Source: Ignavibacteriota bacterium (GTDB lineage Bacteria > Bacteroidota > Ignavibacteria > UBA10030 > UBA6906). From it: a stretch of DNA of 56,170 nt. Below, piece by piece: positions 24,119 to 30,040 of this stretch. The notes beneath the pieces were generated by a model. It was not told where the DNA came from and searched no databases. It saw only the letters and a program-made list of their open reading frames with translations. Where the stretch lies: assembly GCA_003158475.1 (NCBI GenBank), contig PMJR01000056.1, positions 2,007-58,176 of the forward strand, in the 5' to 3' direction. Position 1 is the stretch's first letter; every line of letters begins with the position of its first letter. A program made the position numbers and the translations under genes.

Positions 24119-24505
24119 GTGACCATCCGGATCGTGCATTCATCACAGGCTTTGCCCCACTCCTGGCGCCGGATCGCGACATGGGTCCTGCTCTGTCTGT
24201 ATCTGCTGACAGGCCCGGTGATAGGAGCTGTTCACTCTGAATCCCTCTGCCTCTGTTCGGGGAGCGGGTCGGGGCTGATGATCCATGCCCCCGGAGAGGG
24301 GAACCGCCGCTTTCCCGTCGATCTATCCCACACTTGCGCAATCTGCACGCAGCTTACGGAGAGGACGACGACGCCTGCGGTATCGTATCATCTATCAGCC
24401 CTCCGTCTGGTCTGGCTCCTCGACGTGCCGGTATTCACCGCACAGGCCGTTCCCGTCCAATACCTCTCTCCCGACAAGCGGGGCCCTCCCCCCGCGCGCG
24501 CCTAG
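24119..24505 (+). CDS. exported Cys/His-containing small protein heading metal-uptake operon
   Basis: A protein of 128 residues from GTG 24119, with a hydrophobic leader (IATWVLLCLYLLTGPVIGAV). The mature part has the cysteine clusters ESLCLCSG and HTCAICTQLTERT. Small exported proteins with a C..C cluster of this kind (DUF2946-like) often precede metal transport genes. Here a porin, a ZnuA-like binding protein and a ZnuB-like permease follow, so a metal-binding or metal-sensing role is plausible. I cannot assign the family firmly, and the start has no clear ribosome site. Confidence 0.55.
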   Translation: MTIRIVHSSQALPHSWRRIATWVLLCLYLLTGPVIGAVHSESLCLCSGSGSGLMIHAPGEGNRRFPVDLSHTCAICTQLTERTTTPAVSYHLSALRLVWLLDVPVFTAQAVPVQYLSPDKRGPPPARA

Positions 24506-24600: not shown

Positions 24601-25938
24601 ATGCGTTCAAGCACAATGCTGCTCCTTTGTTTCACATTCCTTTTCATATTCAGGGGGGAAGCCCAGGAATCTGAGGCATCGAAAAACAAGACCATCGAAG
24701 AGTTGCACGCAGAAGTTGCACGGCTCCGCCATGACCTCGATAGCCTGAAGACGCTCCGAAAGGCGGACCTCCTGACACAGGGCGATATGCTGGACAGGTT
24801 GGAGGAGACCCTGGAGAAACGCCTGACGTATCTCGAAACAAAAATTGACGCCGTGTCCCGGGCGACGGCCCCCGTGGCGTTCAACCCCGGCATGACTGCG
24901 TTCATCAACTTTGCCGCTCGCGGGGACAGCAGGAAAGTCTACGATCTGGCGGACCCGGCCAATGAGATAAGCAACCGTCCTTTTCTCCGCACCGTGGAGA
25001 TGGAGCTGCTCGGCGCCGTGGACCCTTATGCCTCCGCGGTCGCCGTGATTTCCATCGAAAACCAGGCCGGGAAGGACTTCGCAATAGATGCGGAAGAGGC
25101 GTACGGTCTCCTCAAAAGGATCCCCATTCTGGAAGATGCGCCCCTGGGTATGAAAGTGAAGATCGGGAAGTACAGGGCTCCGTTCGGCGTCAGCAACAGG
25201 ATCCACATGCATGATCTCCCCTGGACGACCCGGCCCCTCGCCGTGGCGCGCTATCTCGGGACGGAGCACGGGGACTTTTTCGAATCAGGATTCAACCCTA
25301 CCGGGATGGACATGAATTTCTACGTCCCGAATCCCATCCCGCAGACGACGATGGAAATGAACCTCGACGTCGTCCGGGCGGGGGAGCTGACGCTCTCGGG
25401 GGGGCGGGGAGGCTCACAACCTGCGTACGTCGGGCATCTGAATCTTTCGAGAGACTGGTCCAATCAGCACCTGCTGATTCTCGGCCTGAGTGCGTACGAG
25501 GAACATGGGAGCGCGACGACGCGCCTCTACGGCGCCGATCTCACGTACAAGTGGGCTCCGCTGGAAGAACGGGAGTCCCATTCATTTGTCGCCGGGGGAG
25601 AGGTTTTTGCGGGCCGGCATGTGTTCACGGACAGCGCCGTAGCGGTCTCGAGCAACTCCCCTGTAGGCTGGTACGGGTATCTCCAGTACCAGACATCATA
25701 CTGGGTCTATCTCGGCCTCCGGTATGACTGGGTCGAAGAGCCTTCCAATGACAGGCTCGTGACCCGCTCGATAGGGACGTATGCCAGCTACTACACGACG
25801 GAGTTCCTCCGCCTCAGGCTGGGTTTCGAACACCGGTCGAGCGACATCCCGGTGCAGAACAATGTGAACACGGTGCTTCTTGAGGTGAATCTGGTCTTTG
25901 GGTCGCACCCGACTGAACCGTACTGGGTGAACAAGTGA
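24601..25938 (+). CDS. porin-like outer-membrane protein of the metal-uptake operon
   Basis: A protein of 445 residues from ATG 24601, which follows a perfect AGGAGG; the open frame extends upstream to 24334 but only this start gives a signal peptide (MLLLCFTFLFIFRGEAQ). A coiled-coil segment follows (TIEELHAEVARLRHDLDSLK, about 25-75). The rest is a barrel with repeated short strands (KVKIGKYRAPFGVSNRIHMH, YGYLQYQTSYWVYLGLRYDW) resembling phosphate-selective or OprB-type porins with an N-terminal coiled coil. It lies directly before the substrate-binding protein, so it may admit metal ions or complexes across the outer membrane. Confidence 0.8.
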   Translation: MRSSTMLLLCFTFLFIFRGEAQESEASKNKTIEELHAEVARLRHDLDSLKTLRKADLLTQGDMLDRLEETLEKRLTYLETKIDAVSRATAPVAFNPGMTAFINFAARGDSRKVYDLADPANEISNRPFLRTVEMELLGAVDPYASAVAVISIENQAGKDFAIDAEEAYGLLKRIPILEDAPLGMKVKIGKYRAPFGVSNRIHMHDLPWTTRPLAVARYLGTEHGDFFESGFNPTGMDMNFYVPNPIPQTTMEMNLDVVRAGELTLSGGRGGSQPAYVGHLNLSRDWSNQHLLILGLSAYEEHGSATTRLYGADLTYKWAPLEERESHSFVAGGEVFAGRHVFTDSAVAVSSNSPVGWYGYLQYQTSYWVYLGLRYDWVEEPSNDRLVTRSIGTYASYYTTEFLRLRLGFEHRSSDIPVQNNVNTVLLEVNLVFGSHPTEPYWVNK

Positions 25939-25957: not shown

Positions 25958-26992
25958 ATGATGAAAAAGAAATCCGGACTCTTCCTTCTCCCCCTGCTGG
26001 TTCTCTGCGCGTTCCCTCAGTCCCCGGCGCGGGAGGGGAAACTCAAGATCGTCACCACGCTCGGCTACCTCCGTTATGTTGCGCAGGAAGTGGGGGGGGA
26101 CAGGGTGACGGCCGTAGCGCTCGCAAACCCGCGGCAGGATCCCCATTATGTTACCCCGACGCCTGCCATGAACCAGCTCACGTCGGACGCCGACCTCTTC
26201 ATCGAGAACGGGCTTTCACTCGACATTTGGCAAAAGAATGTCGTGGACGCGTCGGGGAATCCCGCAATCCAGCCGGGGAATCCGGGGCATCTCGTCGCCA
26301 CCGTTAATGTCCCCGTGAAGGAGCTCCCGACCGAGGTCTCCCGTGCCTGGGGGGATATCCACCCGCAGGGGAACCCCCATATCTGGCTCGATCCTCTGAA
26401 TATCAGGATCGTCGCTGGGAATATCGCGGAGAGGCTGAAGCAGCTCGACCCCGCGAACACCGCGTACTACCAGACCAGGCTCGAACAGTTCAGGGGCCGG
26501 CTGGACGCCGCAATGTTCGGGGAAGAGCTTGTGCGGGCACTTGGGAAATCCGGGGGAGATGTCCTGGTGCGCAAGGCGATAAACAACGAGCTGGCGGACT
26601 GGCTGAAACTGAGGGGTCTGGAAGGGAAGCTGGGTGGATGGATGAAGGAGGCGGCCCCCTTGAACGGGATGAAGGTCATCTCGTACCATAAGACCTATAT
26701 TTACTTCGCAGACCGTTTCGGTCTCCAGCTCACGGGTGAGCTCGAGGAGAAACCGGGAATCCCCCCGCCCCCGCAGCACCGGGATGCGGTCGTCGAAGAT
26801 GTGAAGCGCGAAGGGATCCGGGTGATATTGAATGACAACTTCTACTCCCGGGAAGCGGCGGACTACGTCGCGAGCAAGACGGGGGCGAAGGTGATCATCA
26901 CCTATCTCGACGTCGGTGCGCTCCCTGAGGTCGATACCTATGAAAAGCTGATCACATTTCTGGTCCAGAATATCACGCAGGCAGTCAGATGA
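25958..26992 (+). CDS. ZnuA/TroA-like metal ABC transporter substrate-binding protein
   Basis: Periplasmic binding protein for a divalent metal (zinc or manganese). The protein is 344 residues with a signal peptide (GLFLLPLLVLCAFPQSPA). Family landmarks are KIVTTLGYLRYVAQEVGGDR, the first His in PRQDPHYVTPTP, the second in NPHIWLDPLNI, a third in ISYHKTYIYFADRFGL, and a late segment TGAKVIITYLDVGA. The His-rich loop common in ZnuA is replaced by PPPPQHRD. The stop overlaps the permease start as ATGA. No ATPase gene follows in the operon. Confidence 0.92.
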   Translation: MMKKKSGLFLLPLLVLCAFPQSPAREGKLKIVTTLGYLRYVAQEVGGDRVTAVALANPRQDPHYVTPTPAMNQLTSDADLFIENGLSLDIWQKNVVDASGNPAIQPGNPGHLVATVNVPVKELPTEVSRAWGDIHPQGNPHIWLDPLNIRIVAGNIAERLKQLDPANTAYYQTRLEQFRGRLDAAMFGEELVRALGKSGGDVLVRKAINNELADWLKLRGLEGKLGGWMKEAAPLNGMKVISYHKTYIYFADRFGLQLTGELEEKPGIPPPPQHRDAVVEDVKREGIRVILNDNFYSREAADYVASKTGAKVIITYLDVGALPEVDTYEKLITFLVQNITQAVR

Positions 26993-28494
26993 TCGAGCAG
27001 ATCTTCTCCTTCCCTTCCACGATGATCTGGCCCCTTGCGGCCTGTCTCATCCTGACCGGCATACACGTCTACCTGGGGGTCCATGTCATTGCGCGCAAGG
27101 TGATATTCGTGGATCTCGCGCTCGCGCAGATTGCCGCACTGGGGACCGTCACGGGTGTCCTTCTCGGTTACGAGGCGGGGAAGGACATCAACGCGCTCTA
27201 TCTATACTCGCTCGCGTTCACGTTCTTCGGGGCATTCATCTTCTCCATCACGCGGATGAGGGGGGAAAGAGTCCCCCACGAGGCCATAATCGGGATCGTC
27301 TATGCGGTGACGTTCGCCGCGACGATACTCGTCCTATCCAAAAGCGCGCTCGGACCGCAGGAGCTGGATCACATAATCAAGGGGGACCTCCTCTGGGTCC
27401 AGTCTGCGGTCGTCATCAAGACCGCCCTCATTTATGCGGCGGTCGGGCTGTTCCATTTCGCGTTCCGGAAGAACTTCTTGGCGATCTCCTTCGACGTGCA
27501 TGCCGCGGAGGCCGCGGGAATCCGTGTGCGGCTGTGGGATTTTCTCTTCTATATGTCGTTCGGGTTCGTCATCACGAGCTCGGTGGCGATCGCCGGCGTC
27601 TTCCTGGTGTTCAGCTACCTGGTCATCCCCTCCGTCGCCGCGATGCTCCTTGCCGAGAAGATAAGCACGCGCCTCGCGCTGGGATGGATCGGGAGTTCGA
27701 TCATAAGCTTCATCGGCGTGAAGCTCTCCTGGAGCACCGGGTTGCCGACCAGCCCCCTGATCGTGGTCCTCTTCGCGGCTGCGCTCCTCCTGACCGGCGT
27801 GTTCAGGTACCTGAAACTCGCCCCCGTGAAACTGACGGCTGTCAGGAACATGGCCGGGGCCGTCGCAGTCGTCGCTCTGTTCGTCGGGGGGTTGTTCTTT
27901 TTCGGCAACCCGGAGGAAGACCCCCTGACACACACGCTCCACATGCTGGGGAGTCCCCTGAGCACGGATCGCCAGGCTGCCCTGTCGAACCTGAGGACGT
28001 ACGGCGACCGTGACAGTCTCTGGCTCCCGTCAGTGGTCCGGCTGCTCCATGACCAGGATGCGGCGGTCAGGATCGACGCGGTGAATCTTCTGGGGGAGCT
28101 GAAGAAGAAATCCGCTCTCCCCACCGTGCTTGACCTCCTGGATGACGGTTCCGACGAAGTGGTTCTCGGCGTGCTCCGTGCCGCGCAGGTCCTTGGGGAC
28201 AGCGCCGATGCATCCCGGCTGCTTGCAAAGGCCGGGAGCGTCGCGGACCCGGAAATGAAGACCGAGATCCTGAAAGCGGCGCTCGCCATGGGGAATCCCG
28301 GGGCGATCCCGGGACTGATACATGTGGTCTCCGACGGCGGGGTGTTCGCCGACGACGCGCTGGACGCGCTGAAGGCTCATGTCAGGATCGGGTCCGGGAA
28401 TGAACGGCCGGGAAAGCTGGGCGCCTGGTGGAACGAGAACAAGAACAGGATCCGCCGGGACAGGAGTACCGGCATGTTCACAATCCCGGAGTGA
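26989..28494 (+). CDS. ZnuB-type metal ABC permease fused to HEAT repeats
   Basis: A protein of 501 residues. Residues 1 to about 295 form an ABC-3 family permease with eight or nine helices; family motifs include IFVDLALAQIAALGTV near the start and VFSYLVIPSVAAMLL later. The remaining 205 residues are helical repeats of HEAT type (DRQAALSNLRTYGDRDSLWL, PSVVRLLHDQDAAVRIDAVN, LLGELKKKSALPTVLDLLDD). Normal ZnuB proteins are about 260-290 residues, so the tail is an addition. The ATG overlaps the stop of the ZnuA-like gene. The required ATPase is not encoded in this window. Confidence 0.9.
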   Translation: MIEQIFSFPSTMIWPLAACLILTGIHVYLGVHVIARKVIFVDLALAQIAALGTVTGVLLGYEAGKDINALYLYSLAFTFFGAFIFSITRMRGERVPHEAIIGIVYAVTFAATILVLSKSALGPQELDHIIKGDLLWVQSAVVIKTALIYAAVGLFHFAFRKNFLAISFDVHAAEAAGIRVRLWDFLFYMSFGFVITSSVAIAGVFLVFSYLVIPSVAAMLLAEKISTRLALGWIGSSIISFIGVKLSWSTGLPTSPLIVVLFAAALLLTGVFRYLKLAPVKLTAVRNMAGAVAVVALFVGGLFFFGNPEEDPLTHTLHMLGSPLSTDRQAALSNLRTYGDRDSLWLPSVVRLLHDQDAAVRIDAVNLLGELKKKSALPTVLDLLDDGSDEVVLGVLRAAQVLGDSADASRLLAKAGSVADPEMKTEILKAALAMGNPGAIPGLIHVVSDGGVFADDALDALKAHVRIGSGNERPGKLGAWWNENKNRIRRDRSTGMFTIPE

Positions 28495-28558: not shown

Positions 28559-30040
28559 ATGACGACACGATTCATCGGGTTTGACCTGGGGGCGGAAAGC
28601 GGACGGTGCGTCGTCGGGATCCTGCGGGACGGAAAGGTCACGCTGGACGAGGTCCACAGGTTCACCACACACACGGTCCGGTTTCACGGGGGCTTTCACT
28701 GGGATATCCTGGCGATTGCCGAGGAGATGCTGAAGGGGCTCGTCAATGCACGGAAATCTCACGGGCCCGATTTCGACGGGGTAGGGGTGGATACCTGGGG
28801 TGTGGATTACGTTCTTGTTGACCCTGAGGGACGTGTCCTGGGCTATCCGTATCACTATCGTGACGACCGCACGGACAGCATCATGCCCGAAGCTTTCGCG
28901 GTCGTCCCGAAAGAGGCGCTGTACGGGAAGACCGGGATCCAGTTCATGCAGTTCAATACCGTCTTCCAGCTCCTTGCCGAAAAGAAGAGGCGCCTGAACC
29001 TTCTGGATCCGGCGTGGGCAATGCTGCTGATCCCGGATTTCTTCAACTTCATGTTCTCCGGAGTAGTGAAATCGGAATACACCGTTGCTTCCACGACGGG
29101 TCTCATCGATCCGGCGAAGAGAGTCTGGTCGTGGGATCTGATTGAGAAATTCGGGATCGGGAGGCACATATTCCCCGGGATCGTGGAGCCGGGGACGATT
29201 CTCGGACCGCTCCTCCCCGGGATTGCCTCCCGGACGGGGTTGAATCCCGGCATCCCGGTAATTGCGACAGCCTGCCACGATACCGCTTCCGCCGTCGTTT
29301 CCGTCCCTGCCACTGAAGGGTCATGGTCATTCCTCAGTTCGGGGACATGGTCGTTGATGGGTGTGGAGCTGAGAAAGCCCGTCCTTTCTCCCGCCTCGAT
29401 GAGGCTCAACTTCACAAACGAAGGGGGAGTCGACGGGACCATACGGTTTCTGAAGATCATCGCCGGGCTCTGGCCCGTGCAGGAGTGCCGCCGTTGCTGG
29501 AGGGAGGAGAAGAAGGAATTCAGTTATCCCGAGCTGACCCATCTGGCACGGGAGGACGGATTCGCCGGGGCCTGGGTAGACCTCTCCGATCCGAGGTTCC
29601 TGAAGGCGGGTGAGATGCCGAAGAAGATCCTGAGTTACGTGCGGGAGACCGGCGGGGAAACGAAGGCCGGGCCCGGATGGATCATCCGCGTCGTCCTCGA
29701 GAGCCTTGCCTTCAGTTACAGGGCGACGATCAGGGAGATTGAGGAACTCACGGGGATGCACATCGAGAGGCTCCATGCGGTGGGGGGCGGGATTCAGAAC
29801 GATCTGCTGGCGCAGTTCGCCGCAGATGCGACCGGCCTGACGGTGTATGCCGGTCCGATAGAAGGGACGATCGTGGGGAATATCGGCGTGCAGGCCGTCG
29901 CCCGGGGGATAGTCTCGGACTATCCGGCGTGGAGGAAGATTGTCGCCGGTTCCTTCGATCTCGATGTTTACCATCCCCGGGACACCGCATACTTTGATGC
30001 GAACGAAAAAAAATACGCGAGGATTCTGAACAAGAACTGA
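28559..30040 (+). CDS. rhaB: rhamnulokinase
   Basis: Phosphorylates L-rhamnulose to L-rhamnulose 1-phosphate in cytosolic L-rhamnose breakdown. The protein is 493 residues, the usual size of FGGY-family sugar kinases. It has the phosphate-1 motif FIGFDLGAESGR, GVDTWGVDYVLVD, DDRTD and QFNTVFQLLAEK typical of RhaB, ATACHDTASAV, SSGTWSLMG and the adenosine motif AVGGGIQNDLLAQFAADATG. No rhaA or rhaD neighbour is present. The nearby GH2 enzyme and SGNH esterase could supply deoxy-sugars from polysaccharide. Confidence 0.93.
   Translation: MTTRFIGFDLGAESGRCVVGILRDGKVTLDEVHRFTTHTVRFHGGFHWDILAIAEEMLKGLVNARKSHGPDFDGVGVDTWGVDYVLVDPEGRVLGYPYHYRDDRTDSIMPEAFAVVPKEALYGKTGIQFMQFNTVFQLLAEKKRRLNLLDPAWAMLLIPDFFNFMFSGVVKSEYTVASTTGLIDPAKRVWSWDLIEKFGIGRHIFPGIVEPGTILGPLLPGIASRTGLNPGIPVIATACHDTASAVVSVPATEGSWSFLSSGTWSLMGVELRKPVLSPASMRLNFTNEGGVDGTIRFLKIIAGLWPVQECRRCWREEKKEFSYPELTHLAREDGFAGAWVDLSDPRFLKAGEMPKKILSYVRETGGETKAGPGWIIRVVLESLAFSYRATIREIEELTGMHIERLHAVGGGIQNDLLAQFAADATGLTVYAGPIEGTIVGNIGVQAVARGIVSDYPAWRKIVAGSFDLDVYHPRDTAYFDANEKKYARILNKN

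What the first reader, a model, noticed from the sequence alone, without database searches (positions are those of the whole stretch)
26989..28494. Metal permease fused to HEAT repeats, with no ATPase gene in the operon
The C-terminal 200 residues of the ZnuB-type permease are HEAT repeats, not known in standard ZnuB. The usual ZnuC ATPase gene is absent. The HEAT tail could recruit a shared ATPase or another cytoplasmic partner.
Basis: partly seen in the sequence, partly recalled or inferred. Interest (0 to 1): 0.55.

Follow-up and report, generated by a model that had tools for sequence, protein, structure and literature searches.

The report
Metal permease that lost its ATPase
A bacterial metal-uptake membrane protein that looks like half of an ATP-driven pump has no matching ATP-burning partner anywhere in its genome, and carries a repeat domain that probably sits outside the inner membrane, so it may be a pump-derived carrier that works without ATP.

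Summary
The fusion is real. The 501-aa protein is an ABC-3 permease plus an extra membrane helix and a HEAT domain, found in 18 of 100 related genomes. Related genomes carry either porin–SBP–ATPase–permease (18 of 72 genomes with a match) or an ATPase-less locus (54 of 72), never both. None of the 54 has a ZnuC-type ATPase anywhere at the level the 18 show, and 35 lack the nearest type-II family (FecCD/BtuD) too. ATPase-less permeases form one clade (100/100) that reaches other phyla. Their ATPase-docking loop is deleted in one subgroup (14/14), replaced in another (16/16) and poorly conserved in the window's subgroup, where its core Ala/Gly nevertheless survives in 13 of 15.

The tail follows an extra helix after the cytoplasmic C-terminus, so it is predicted periplasmic. 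It begins with a conserved EDPxxHxxH stretch, where relatives have His clusters. Tail-less relatives lack the ATPase too.

Best reading: an SBP- and porin-assisted metal carrier descended from an ABC importer, working without a dedicated ATPase and probably without ATP (inferred, untested).

The parts
26989..28494 (+). ATPase-less ABC-3 permease with extra TM helix and HEAT tail, 501 aa (the finding)
27019..27813 (+). ABC-3 transmembrane core, residues 11-275; clade-specific invariant residues R36, D42, Q47, E98 (64 of 64 ATPase-less rows)
   Evidence: Pfam ABC-3 11-269; PsaB 7kyp Z 27.2 over model 1-278; conservation
27481..27531 (+). coupling-helix (ATPase-docking) loop, residues 165-181, poorly conserved in this group
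27829..27900 (+). extra transmembrane helix, residues 281-304, absent from ordinary ABC-3 permeases and from tail-less relatives
   Evidence: model helix 281-304, hydropathy, positive residues just before it in all 15 fused rows
27916..27942 (+). E310-D311-P312-x-x-H315-x-x-H318 stretch at the start of the tail, possible periplasmic metal-binding site
   Evidence: E310, P312, H315 in 15 of 15, D311 and H318 in 14 of 15 fused rows; His-rich clusters at the same place in 6 of 8 distinct tailed distant relatives
27922..28440 (+). HEAT-type helical tail, helices 312-484, predicted periplasmic
25958..26992 (+). ZnuA-type substrate-binding protein with signal peptide; overlaps the permease start by 4 bases
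   Evidence: PF01297 E 4.5e-47; ligand-type histidines H63, H141, H244 in 59 of 59 aligned rows including E. coli ZnuA
24601..25938 (+). outer-membrane porin-like protein, conserved next to the binding protein
   Evidence: weak BBP2 match, below cut-off; homologue in all 49 clustered loci
24119..24505 (+). small DUF2946-like protein upstream of the porin; association uncertain
   Evidence: weak Pfam match below cut-off; homologues upstream of the porin also in canonical loci L121, L124, L130, L131

Best explanation
The locus encodes a metal-uptake route of three parts: a porin lets the metal through the outer membrane, a ZnuA-type binding protein captures it in the periplasm, and the permease carries it across the inner membrane. 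The permease descends from ABC-3 importer subunits but belongs to a clade that has lost its dedicated ATPase and is losing the ATPase-docking loop. I propose that it carries the divalent cation without ATP, pulled inward by the membrane potential and possibly coupled to protons through the clade's invariant intramembrane D42 and E98. The HEAT tail, on the periplasmic side, would hold metal and/or the binding protein at the entrance and so raise local supply. Shown by computation: fusion, conservation, absence of a ZnuC-type ATPase, single clade, loop erosion. Predicted: periplasmic tail. Inferred, untested: ATP-free transport, direction, substrate, role of the tail.
For: 18 of 72 genomes with a match have porin-SBP-ATPase-permease or the ATPase directly next to the permease, 54 of 72 are ATPase-less, and no genome has both, as expected if one type replaces the other for the same job. 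ZnuC profile: 391-452 bits in 17 of the 18 (the other, G097, is a 121-aa piece with 183 bits), at most 195 in the 54. 35 of 54 have neither a ZnuC-profile match at E<=1e-45 nor a FecCD permease at E<=1e-25; in 12 of these searched more deeply the best ATPase has 133 bits against 159 for the distant E. coli ZnuC. All 64 ATPase-less permeases form one clade, 100/100, with the coupling loop left out of the tree. Coupling loop: 21 residues between anchors in 13 of 13 ATPase-coupled permeases, 6 in 14 of 14 S-group, A173+G177 kept in 0 of 16 B-group and 0 of 2 M-group. In F only 5 of 252 same-width windows are less conserved than this loop, in C 137 of 252. Same locus type in other phyla: in 11 of 14 such genomes it is the only ABC-3 permease. 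Precedent: solitary BtuM and BioY import without an ECF module (PMC6072759, passages).
Against: In the window's own group the coupling-loop Ala and Gly survive in 13 of 15, and in 14 of 17 distant relatives, which may mean that something still docks there. Every genome has dozens of other ABC ATPases, so a non-ZnuC partner in trans is possible. Four of the 11 single-permease genomes outside the order have an ATPase of 159-193 bits, the range of E. coli ZnuC; only one of them lies beside a FecCD permease within the stretch read. An ATP-driven step is normally what empties the binding protein, and no substitute is shown. No transport data. Genomes are drafts of 55-100% estimated completeness.
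Confidence: 0.5

Rival explanations
1. The permease is an ordinary ABC importer subunit that borrows an ABC ATPase encoded elsewhere (a shared ATPase), as sugar importers borrow MsmK-type ATPases (recalled).
For: Coupling-loop Ala/Gly kept in 13 of 15 fused and 14 of 17 distant rows. The own genome has a BtuD-like ATPase of 192 bits. 25 ATPase matches at E<=1e-20 in the own genome.
Against: 35 of 54 ATPase-less genomes have neither ZnuC nor FecCD/BtuD-type components at the thresholds used. The 159-222-bit ATPases of the relatives occur in 30 genomes, 29 of which also have a FecCD permease, so they belong there. The loop is gone in 14 of 14 S-group and replaced in 16 of 16 B-group members of the same clade. 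No ATPase stays near the locus in 46 of 48 loci read; the two exceptions (L122, L126) are 316-aa ABC-2-type ATPases by their look.
Confidence: 0.28
2. The protein no longer transports: it is a receptor or scaffold, in which the SBP reports metal to the permease-like core, or the core anchors the HEAT tail and the SBP near the porin.
For: No energy source identified; a large tail that varies more (43% mean pairwise identity) than the core (82%); no duplication of the system in most genomes.
Against: The locus replaces the ATP-driven importer genome by genome, residues at the metal-pathway positions are invariant (64 of 64), and the porin and SBP are always kept. There is no conserved signalling gene beside it. 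Tail-less members exist.
Confidence: 0.15
3. Tail in the cytoplasm, binding a cytoplasmic partner.
For: The AlphaFold model draws residues 180-221 as one helix; if that were a single crossing, the parity would change and the tail would be cytoplasmic.
Against: That stretch is 42 mostly hydrophobic residues, corresponding to TM7 and TM8 of BtuC/BhuU; the core superposes on BhuU (Z 20.3) and BtuC (Z 21-22) up to residue 273-278, and BhuU has a cytoplasmic coupling helix between TM6 and TM7 of ten helices (PMC5136619, passages). Positive charge at 219-228 and 276-286 and hardly any at 248-256 over 78 rows. A related MntC was modelled with nine TM helices and a cytoplasmic C-terminus (PMC8487065, passages).
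Confidence: 0.07

Closest known systems
PsaBC / MntBC / ZnuBC ABC-3 metal importers
   Same: Permease fold (PsaB 7kyp Z 27.2, 268 residues), Pfam ABC-3, ZnuA-type binding protein with three conserved histidines.
   Different: No ATPase gene; coupling loop eroded in the clade; the Asp-His-Asp of the metal pathway (D47, H51, D94 of MntC, PMC8487065) corresponds by alignment to L43, Q47, E98, with an invariant Asp one residue earlier (D42); extra TM and HEAT tail.
Canonical porin-SBP-ATPase-permease loci of the same order (13 read here)
   Same: Same neighbours in the same order, Q at position 47.
   Different: They keep the ATPase between SBP and permease and a fully conserved coupling loop (A173 and G177 in 13 of 13), D at 98, G or S at 42.
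Solitary ECF S-components (BtuM, BioY)
   Same: Membrane half of an ATP-driven importer reported to transport without its ATPase module (PMC6072759, passages).
   Different: Unrelated fold, vitamins, no binding protein or porin; works-like comparison only.
TRAP and TTT transporters (recalled)
   Same: Binding-protein-dependent transport without ATP.
   Different: Different membrane proteins and substrates; no homology tested.

Membership tests
ABC-3 permease family (PF00950) | Match over the curated cut-off | tested here: met
   107.7 bits against a cut-off of 20.1
ABC-3 permease family (PF00950) | Type-II importer fold | tested here: met
   PsaB Z 27.2, BtuC Z 21-22 over residues 1-278
ZnuABC/MntABC ABC importer | Cognate ABC ATPase in the locus or genome | tested here: not met
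   No ZnuC-level match in own genome (best 192 bits, beside FecCD) or in 54 ATPase-less relatives
ZnuABC/MntABC ABC importer | Coupling helix for the ATPase | tested here: inconclusive
   Window group keeps A173 and G177 in 13 of 15 but the loop is among the least conserved stretches; lost in S, B, M groups
ZnuABC/MntABC ABC importer | Asp-His-Asp metal pathway residues | tested here: not met
   L43, Q47, E98 at the aligned positions; triad from PMC8487065
ZnuABC/MntABC ABC importer | ZnuA-type binding protein | tested here: met
   PF01297 E 4.5e-47; three histidines 59 of 59
Shared-ATPase importers | A same-class ATPase elsewhere in the genome, free to be shared | tested here: not met
   35 of 54 ATPase-less genomes lack both ZnuC and FecCD/BtuD-type components at the thresholds used; unrelated ATPases not excluded
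HEAT repeat proteins | HEAT_2 match and HEAT fold | tested here: met
   HEAT_2 43.1 bits over cut-off 27.7; alphaRep/HEAT structures Z 13-16 over 309-501
Binding-protein-dependent secondary transporters (function) | Transport without ATP | not testable with these tools
   Needs transport assays

The most novel reading that the evidence does not exclude
A widespread clade of ABC-importer permeases has become an ATP-independent, binding-protein-dependent metal carrier: a primary pump turned secondary transporter, with periplasmic metal- or SBP-binding tails (HEAT, His-rich) added in two or more lineages.
Probability: 0.48. Interest if true: 0.85.

Novelty: new variant of a known kind. Interest (0 to 1): 0.62.

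Why it matters
ABC importers are defined by their ATPase. A whole clade that keeps porin, binding protein and permease but has dropped the ATPase, and in some branches the ATPase-docking loop, would show that an ABC importer can be converted into a carrier of another kind, and would make testable what ATP is really needed for in metal uptake. For a divalent cation the membrane potential alone could pay: at -120 mV it allows roughly a 10,000-fold gradient (2 x 120/59; textbook relation). It also warns annotation pipelines, which would call these genes incomplete ABC transporters. The periplasmic HEAT and His-rich tails suggest a metal-capturing or SBP-holding device on the outer face of the permease.

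Tried and rejected
Orphan ZnuC in the own genome: searched with AztA and with a profile A1 made of 13 canonical ATPases from the order. The best match (C116, 192 bits) is on the contig of a FecCD permease, about 6 kb away, with sensor kinases between, and was rejected as the partner; this is by neighbourhood and co-occurrence, not by function. Bit score alone does not separate BtuD from distant ZnuC: E. coli ZnuC scores 159, below the own BtuD-like 192.

ATPase just beyond the locus: 48 ATPase-less loci of 47 of the 54 genomes were read with wide flanks (3.3 to 17.5 kb, cut by contig ends); for 5 more (G054, G076, G069, G091, G096) only stretches of about 1.5 kb flanks were read, and 2 (G051, G080) were not read. 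Porin-SBP-permease order seen in 45 of 48; L091, L134 and L141 are cut by contig ends. Two loci (L122, L126) have a 316-aa ATPase about 0.5 kb downstream. Of 18 distant loci (L070-L087) one (L087) has an ATPase about 2 kb away on the other strand.

Rows dropped: from the F alignment the split copy L147 (G003) and the fragments of G054 and G076; D_L082 and D_L084 (near-copies of L079 and L083) were left out of the conservation ranking; the L077, L082, L084 and L086 loci and 13 of the wide loci were not in the clustering. E. coli ZnuB sits on a very long branch, so the root is unsure; the separation of ATPase-less from ATPase-coupled rows does not depend on it.

Considered and rejected: assembly chimera (18 genomes); rhamnulokinase 28559-30040 as part of the system (kept only in some members of the genus); substrate assignment zinc against manganese (not decidable here). 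pdb_via list: no row that adds a function for the tail; absence of a family there is not evidence.

Literature: PMC searches found no description of ATPase-less ABC-3 permeases or of an ABC-3/HEAT fusion; only open-licence papers are held, so this does not show that nothing is in print. Seen as passages only: PMC8487065, PMC11779740, PMC6072759, PMC5136619. The PsaBC paper is not held.

Full report
Observation. The ORF 26989-28494 encodes 501 aa. Pfam finds ABC-3 at 11-269 and HEAT_2 at 320-394, both above their curated cut-offs. The gene overlaps a ZnuA-type binding protein gene by four bases and follows a porin-like gene; no ATPase gene is in the operon. It is the only ABC-3 permease of the genome (3.7 Mb, 153 contigs, 97.85% complete).

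The fusion is old and conserved. In 100 related genomes (own included) 72 have a match to the permease at E <= 1e-8; in 18 of these, in four families, the match reaches into the tail. Three of the 18 are not intact (G003 split by a frameshift, G054 and G076 in fragments). Over 15 intact fused rows the core is 82% identical on average (pairwise) and the tail 43%. They form one clade, 100/100.

The missing ATPase. I read the neighbourhoods of the matches. There are two kinds of loci. Canonical ones have porin, binding protein, ATPase, permease: 13 read in full, and 5 more (G011, G087, G088, G093, G097) whose ATPase lies directly beside the permease by the coordinates, so 18 genomes. The other 54 genomes have ATPase-less loci (18 fused, 2 M, 20 B, 14 S). 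No genome has both kinds. A profile of the 13 canonical ATPases (A1) gives 391-452 bits in 17 of the 18 canonical genomes (a contig-edge piece in G097 gives 183) and at most 195 bits in the 54. The 159-222-bit matches lie in 30 genomes, 29 of which also have a FecCD permease, and in 12 of the 30 on the same contig; they are therefore most likely BtuD/FecE-type. 35 of the 54 ATPase-less genomes, 12 of the 18 fused ones among them, have neither an A1 match at E <= 1e-45 nor a FecCD permease at E <= 1e-25. In 12 of these 35, searched to E 1e-29, the best match is 133 bits, below the 159 bits that E. coli ZnuC reaches; those whose sequence I looked at resemble MacB/LolD, ABC-2, MlaF and FtsE types (by eye).

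Other phyla. Close permeases were found in records named Acidobacteria, Elusimicrobia, Neomarinimicrobiota, Deltaproteobacteria, Myxococcota, Calditrichaeota, Gemmatimonadales and others, again as porin, binding protein, permease, with one ATPase 2 kb off in 18 loci (L087). In 14 of these genomes, 11 have no other ABC-3 permease. The three that do (G105, G112, G113) have ATPases of 154-216 bits beside their other permeases, which shows that A1 finds real ZnuC across phyla. Of the 11, four (G106, G109, G110, G111) have a match of 159-193 bits; G109's lies beside a FecCD permease, for the other three no FecCD permease was found in the 3.6 to 12.5 kb read. So an ATPase partner is less firmly excluded in those three.

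One clade and a decaying docking loop. On the transmembrane core without the loop, all 64 ATPase-less permeases fall on one side of a 100/100 branch, 13 canonical ones and E. coli ZnuB on the other. Between F163 and D184 the 13 canonical rows and E. coli ZnuB all have 21 residues. The 14 S-group rows have 6: the loop is gone. The 16 B-group rows have 20-22 but an acidic replacement, and none keeps A173 and G177. M-group: 0 of 2 keep both. Distant D-group: 14 of 17; window group: 13 of 15, one row having lost eight residues. Ranked among same-width windows of the core, only 5 of 252 are less conserved than the loop in F, 7 of 252 in D, 37 of 252 in B, and 137 of 252 in the ATPase-coupled group. 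That the loop corresponds to the coupling helix follows from alignment to type-II importers, where it lies between TM6 and TM7 on the cytoplasmic side (PMC5136619).

Metal pathway. MntC needs D47, H51 and D94 (PMC8487065, passages). By alignment through E. coli ZnuB these are L43, Q47 and E98 here. D42, Q47 and E98 are invariant in 64 of 64 ATPase-less rows; canonical rows have G or S at 42, Q or E at 47, D at 98. Proton coupling through D42/E98 is only an idea.

The tail is predicted to be outside. The core model superposes on PsaB (residues 1-278, Z 27.2), BtuC (to 273, Z 21-22) and BhuU (to 278, Z 20.3). Coupling helix inside plus four more helices puts the C-terminus of that core in the cytoplasm; a related MntC was modelled with nine helices and a cytoplasmic C-terminus. 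Over 78 rows, loops expected inside carry 1.8 to 3.6 K+R, those outside 0.1 to 1.8, the highest of these (118-139) with 3.0 D+E; 276-286 carries 2.3. The extra helix 281-304 then leads out, so the HEAT tail (helices 312-484) is periplasmic. A caution: the model draws 180-221 as a single helix, where type-II importers have TM7 and TM8; taken at face value it would reverse the parity, but a 42-residue, mostly hydrophobic single crossing is unlikely. The tail starts with E310-D311-P312-x-x-H315-x-x-H318 (14-15 of 15). Eight distinct distant relatives also have an extra helix and a tail, six of them with His-rich stretches at that place, two (L075, L078) without; one (L077) has HEAT_2 over cut-off.

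Interpretation. The replacement of the ATP-driven set by the ATPase-less set, genome by genome and in the same gene order, with a binding protein that keeps its three metal-type histidines (59 of 59), argues for continued transport. With the ATPase gone, and its docking loop gone or drifting, ATP-independent transport is the most economical reading; the membrane potential would suffice thermodynamically for a divalent cation. Solitary BtuM and BioY are a precedent for importer membrane subunits that work without their ATPase module. None of this is a transport measurement, and the window's own group keeps the loop's Ala/Gly in 13 of 15, so a borrowed ATPase stays a serious rival. The tail, being present only in part of the ATPase-less clade and on the wrong side, is unlikely to recruit an ATPase; a metal or binding-protein dock is my inference.

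Novelty. Six searches of the open-licence library found nothing on ATPase-less ABC-3 permeases or this fusion; most subscription papers are not held.

Noticed in passing
L064:4891-6439 (same as L147): In one same-genus genome the fused gene is split into two overlapping frames at residue 140, a frameshift or a sequencing error.
   Followed up: no
L132:5221-5583 and five more S-group loci: A small protein with a His/Cys-rich end lies upstream of the porin in six S-group loci, similar in place to the DUF2946-like protein of the window.
   Followed up: no
L148:8292-15545: In the own genome a FecCD permease and its likely ATPase are separated by two large PAS sensor kinases with response-regulator ends.
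   Followed up: partly
L073, L079, L077, L083, L076, L081 (C-terminal part of the permease): Tailed relatives in other phyla have His-rich clusters just after the extra helix, L073 and L079 very dense ones.
   Followed up: partly
G032:C43 and G032:C12 (L088, L116): One genome holds two ATPase-less sets of different groups, the fused type and the B type.
   Followed up: no
G054:C5:87887-88828 and G054:C12:3-677: Two pieces of fused permeases of different identity (54% and 85%), possibly one truncated copy and one cut by a contig end.
   Followed up: no
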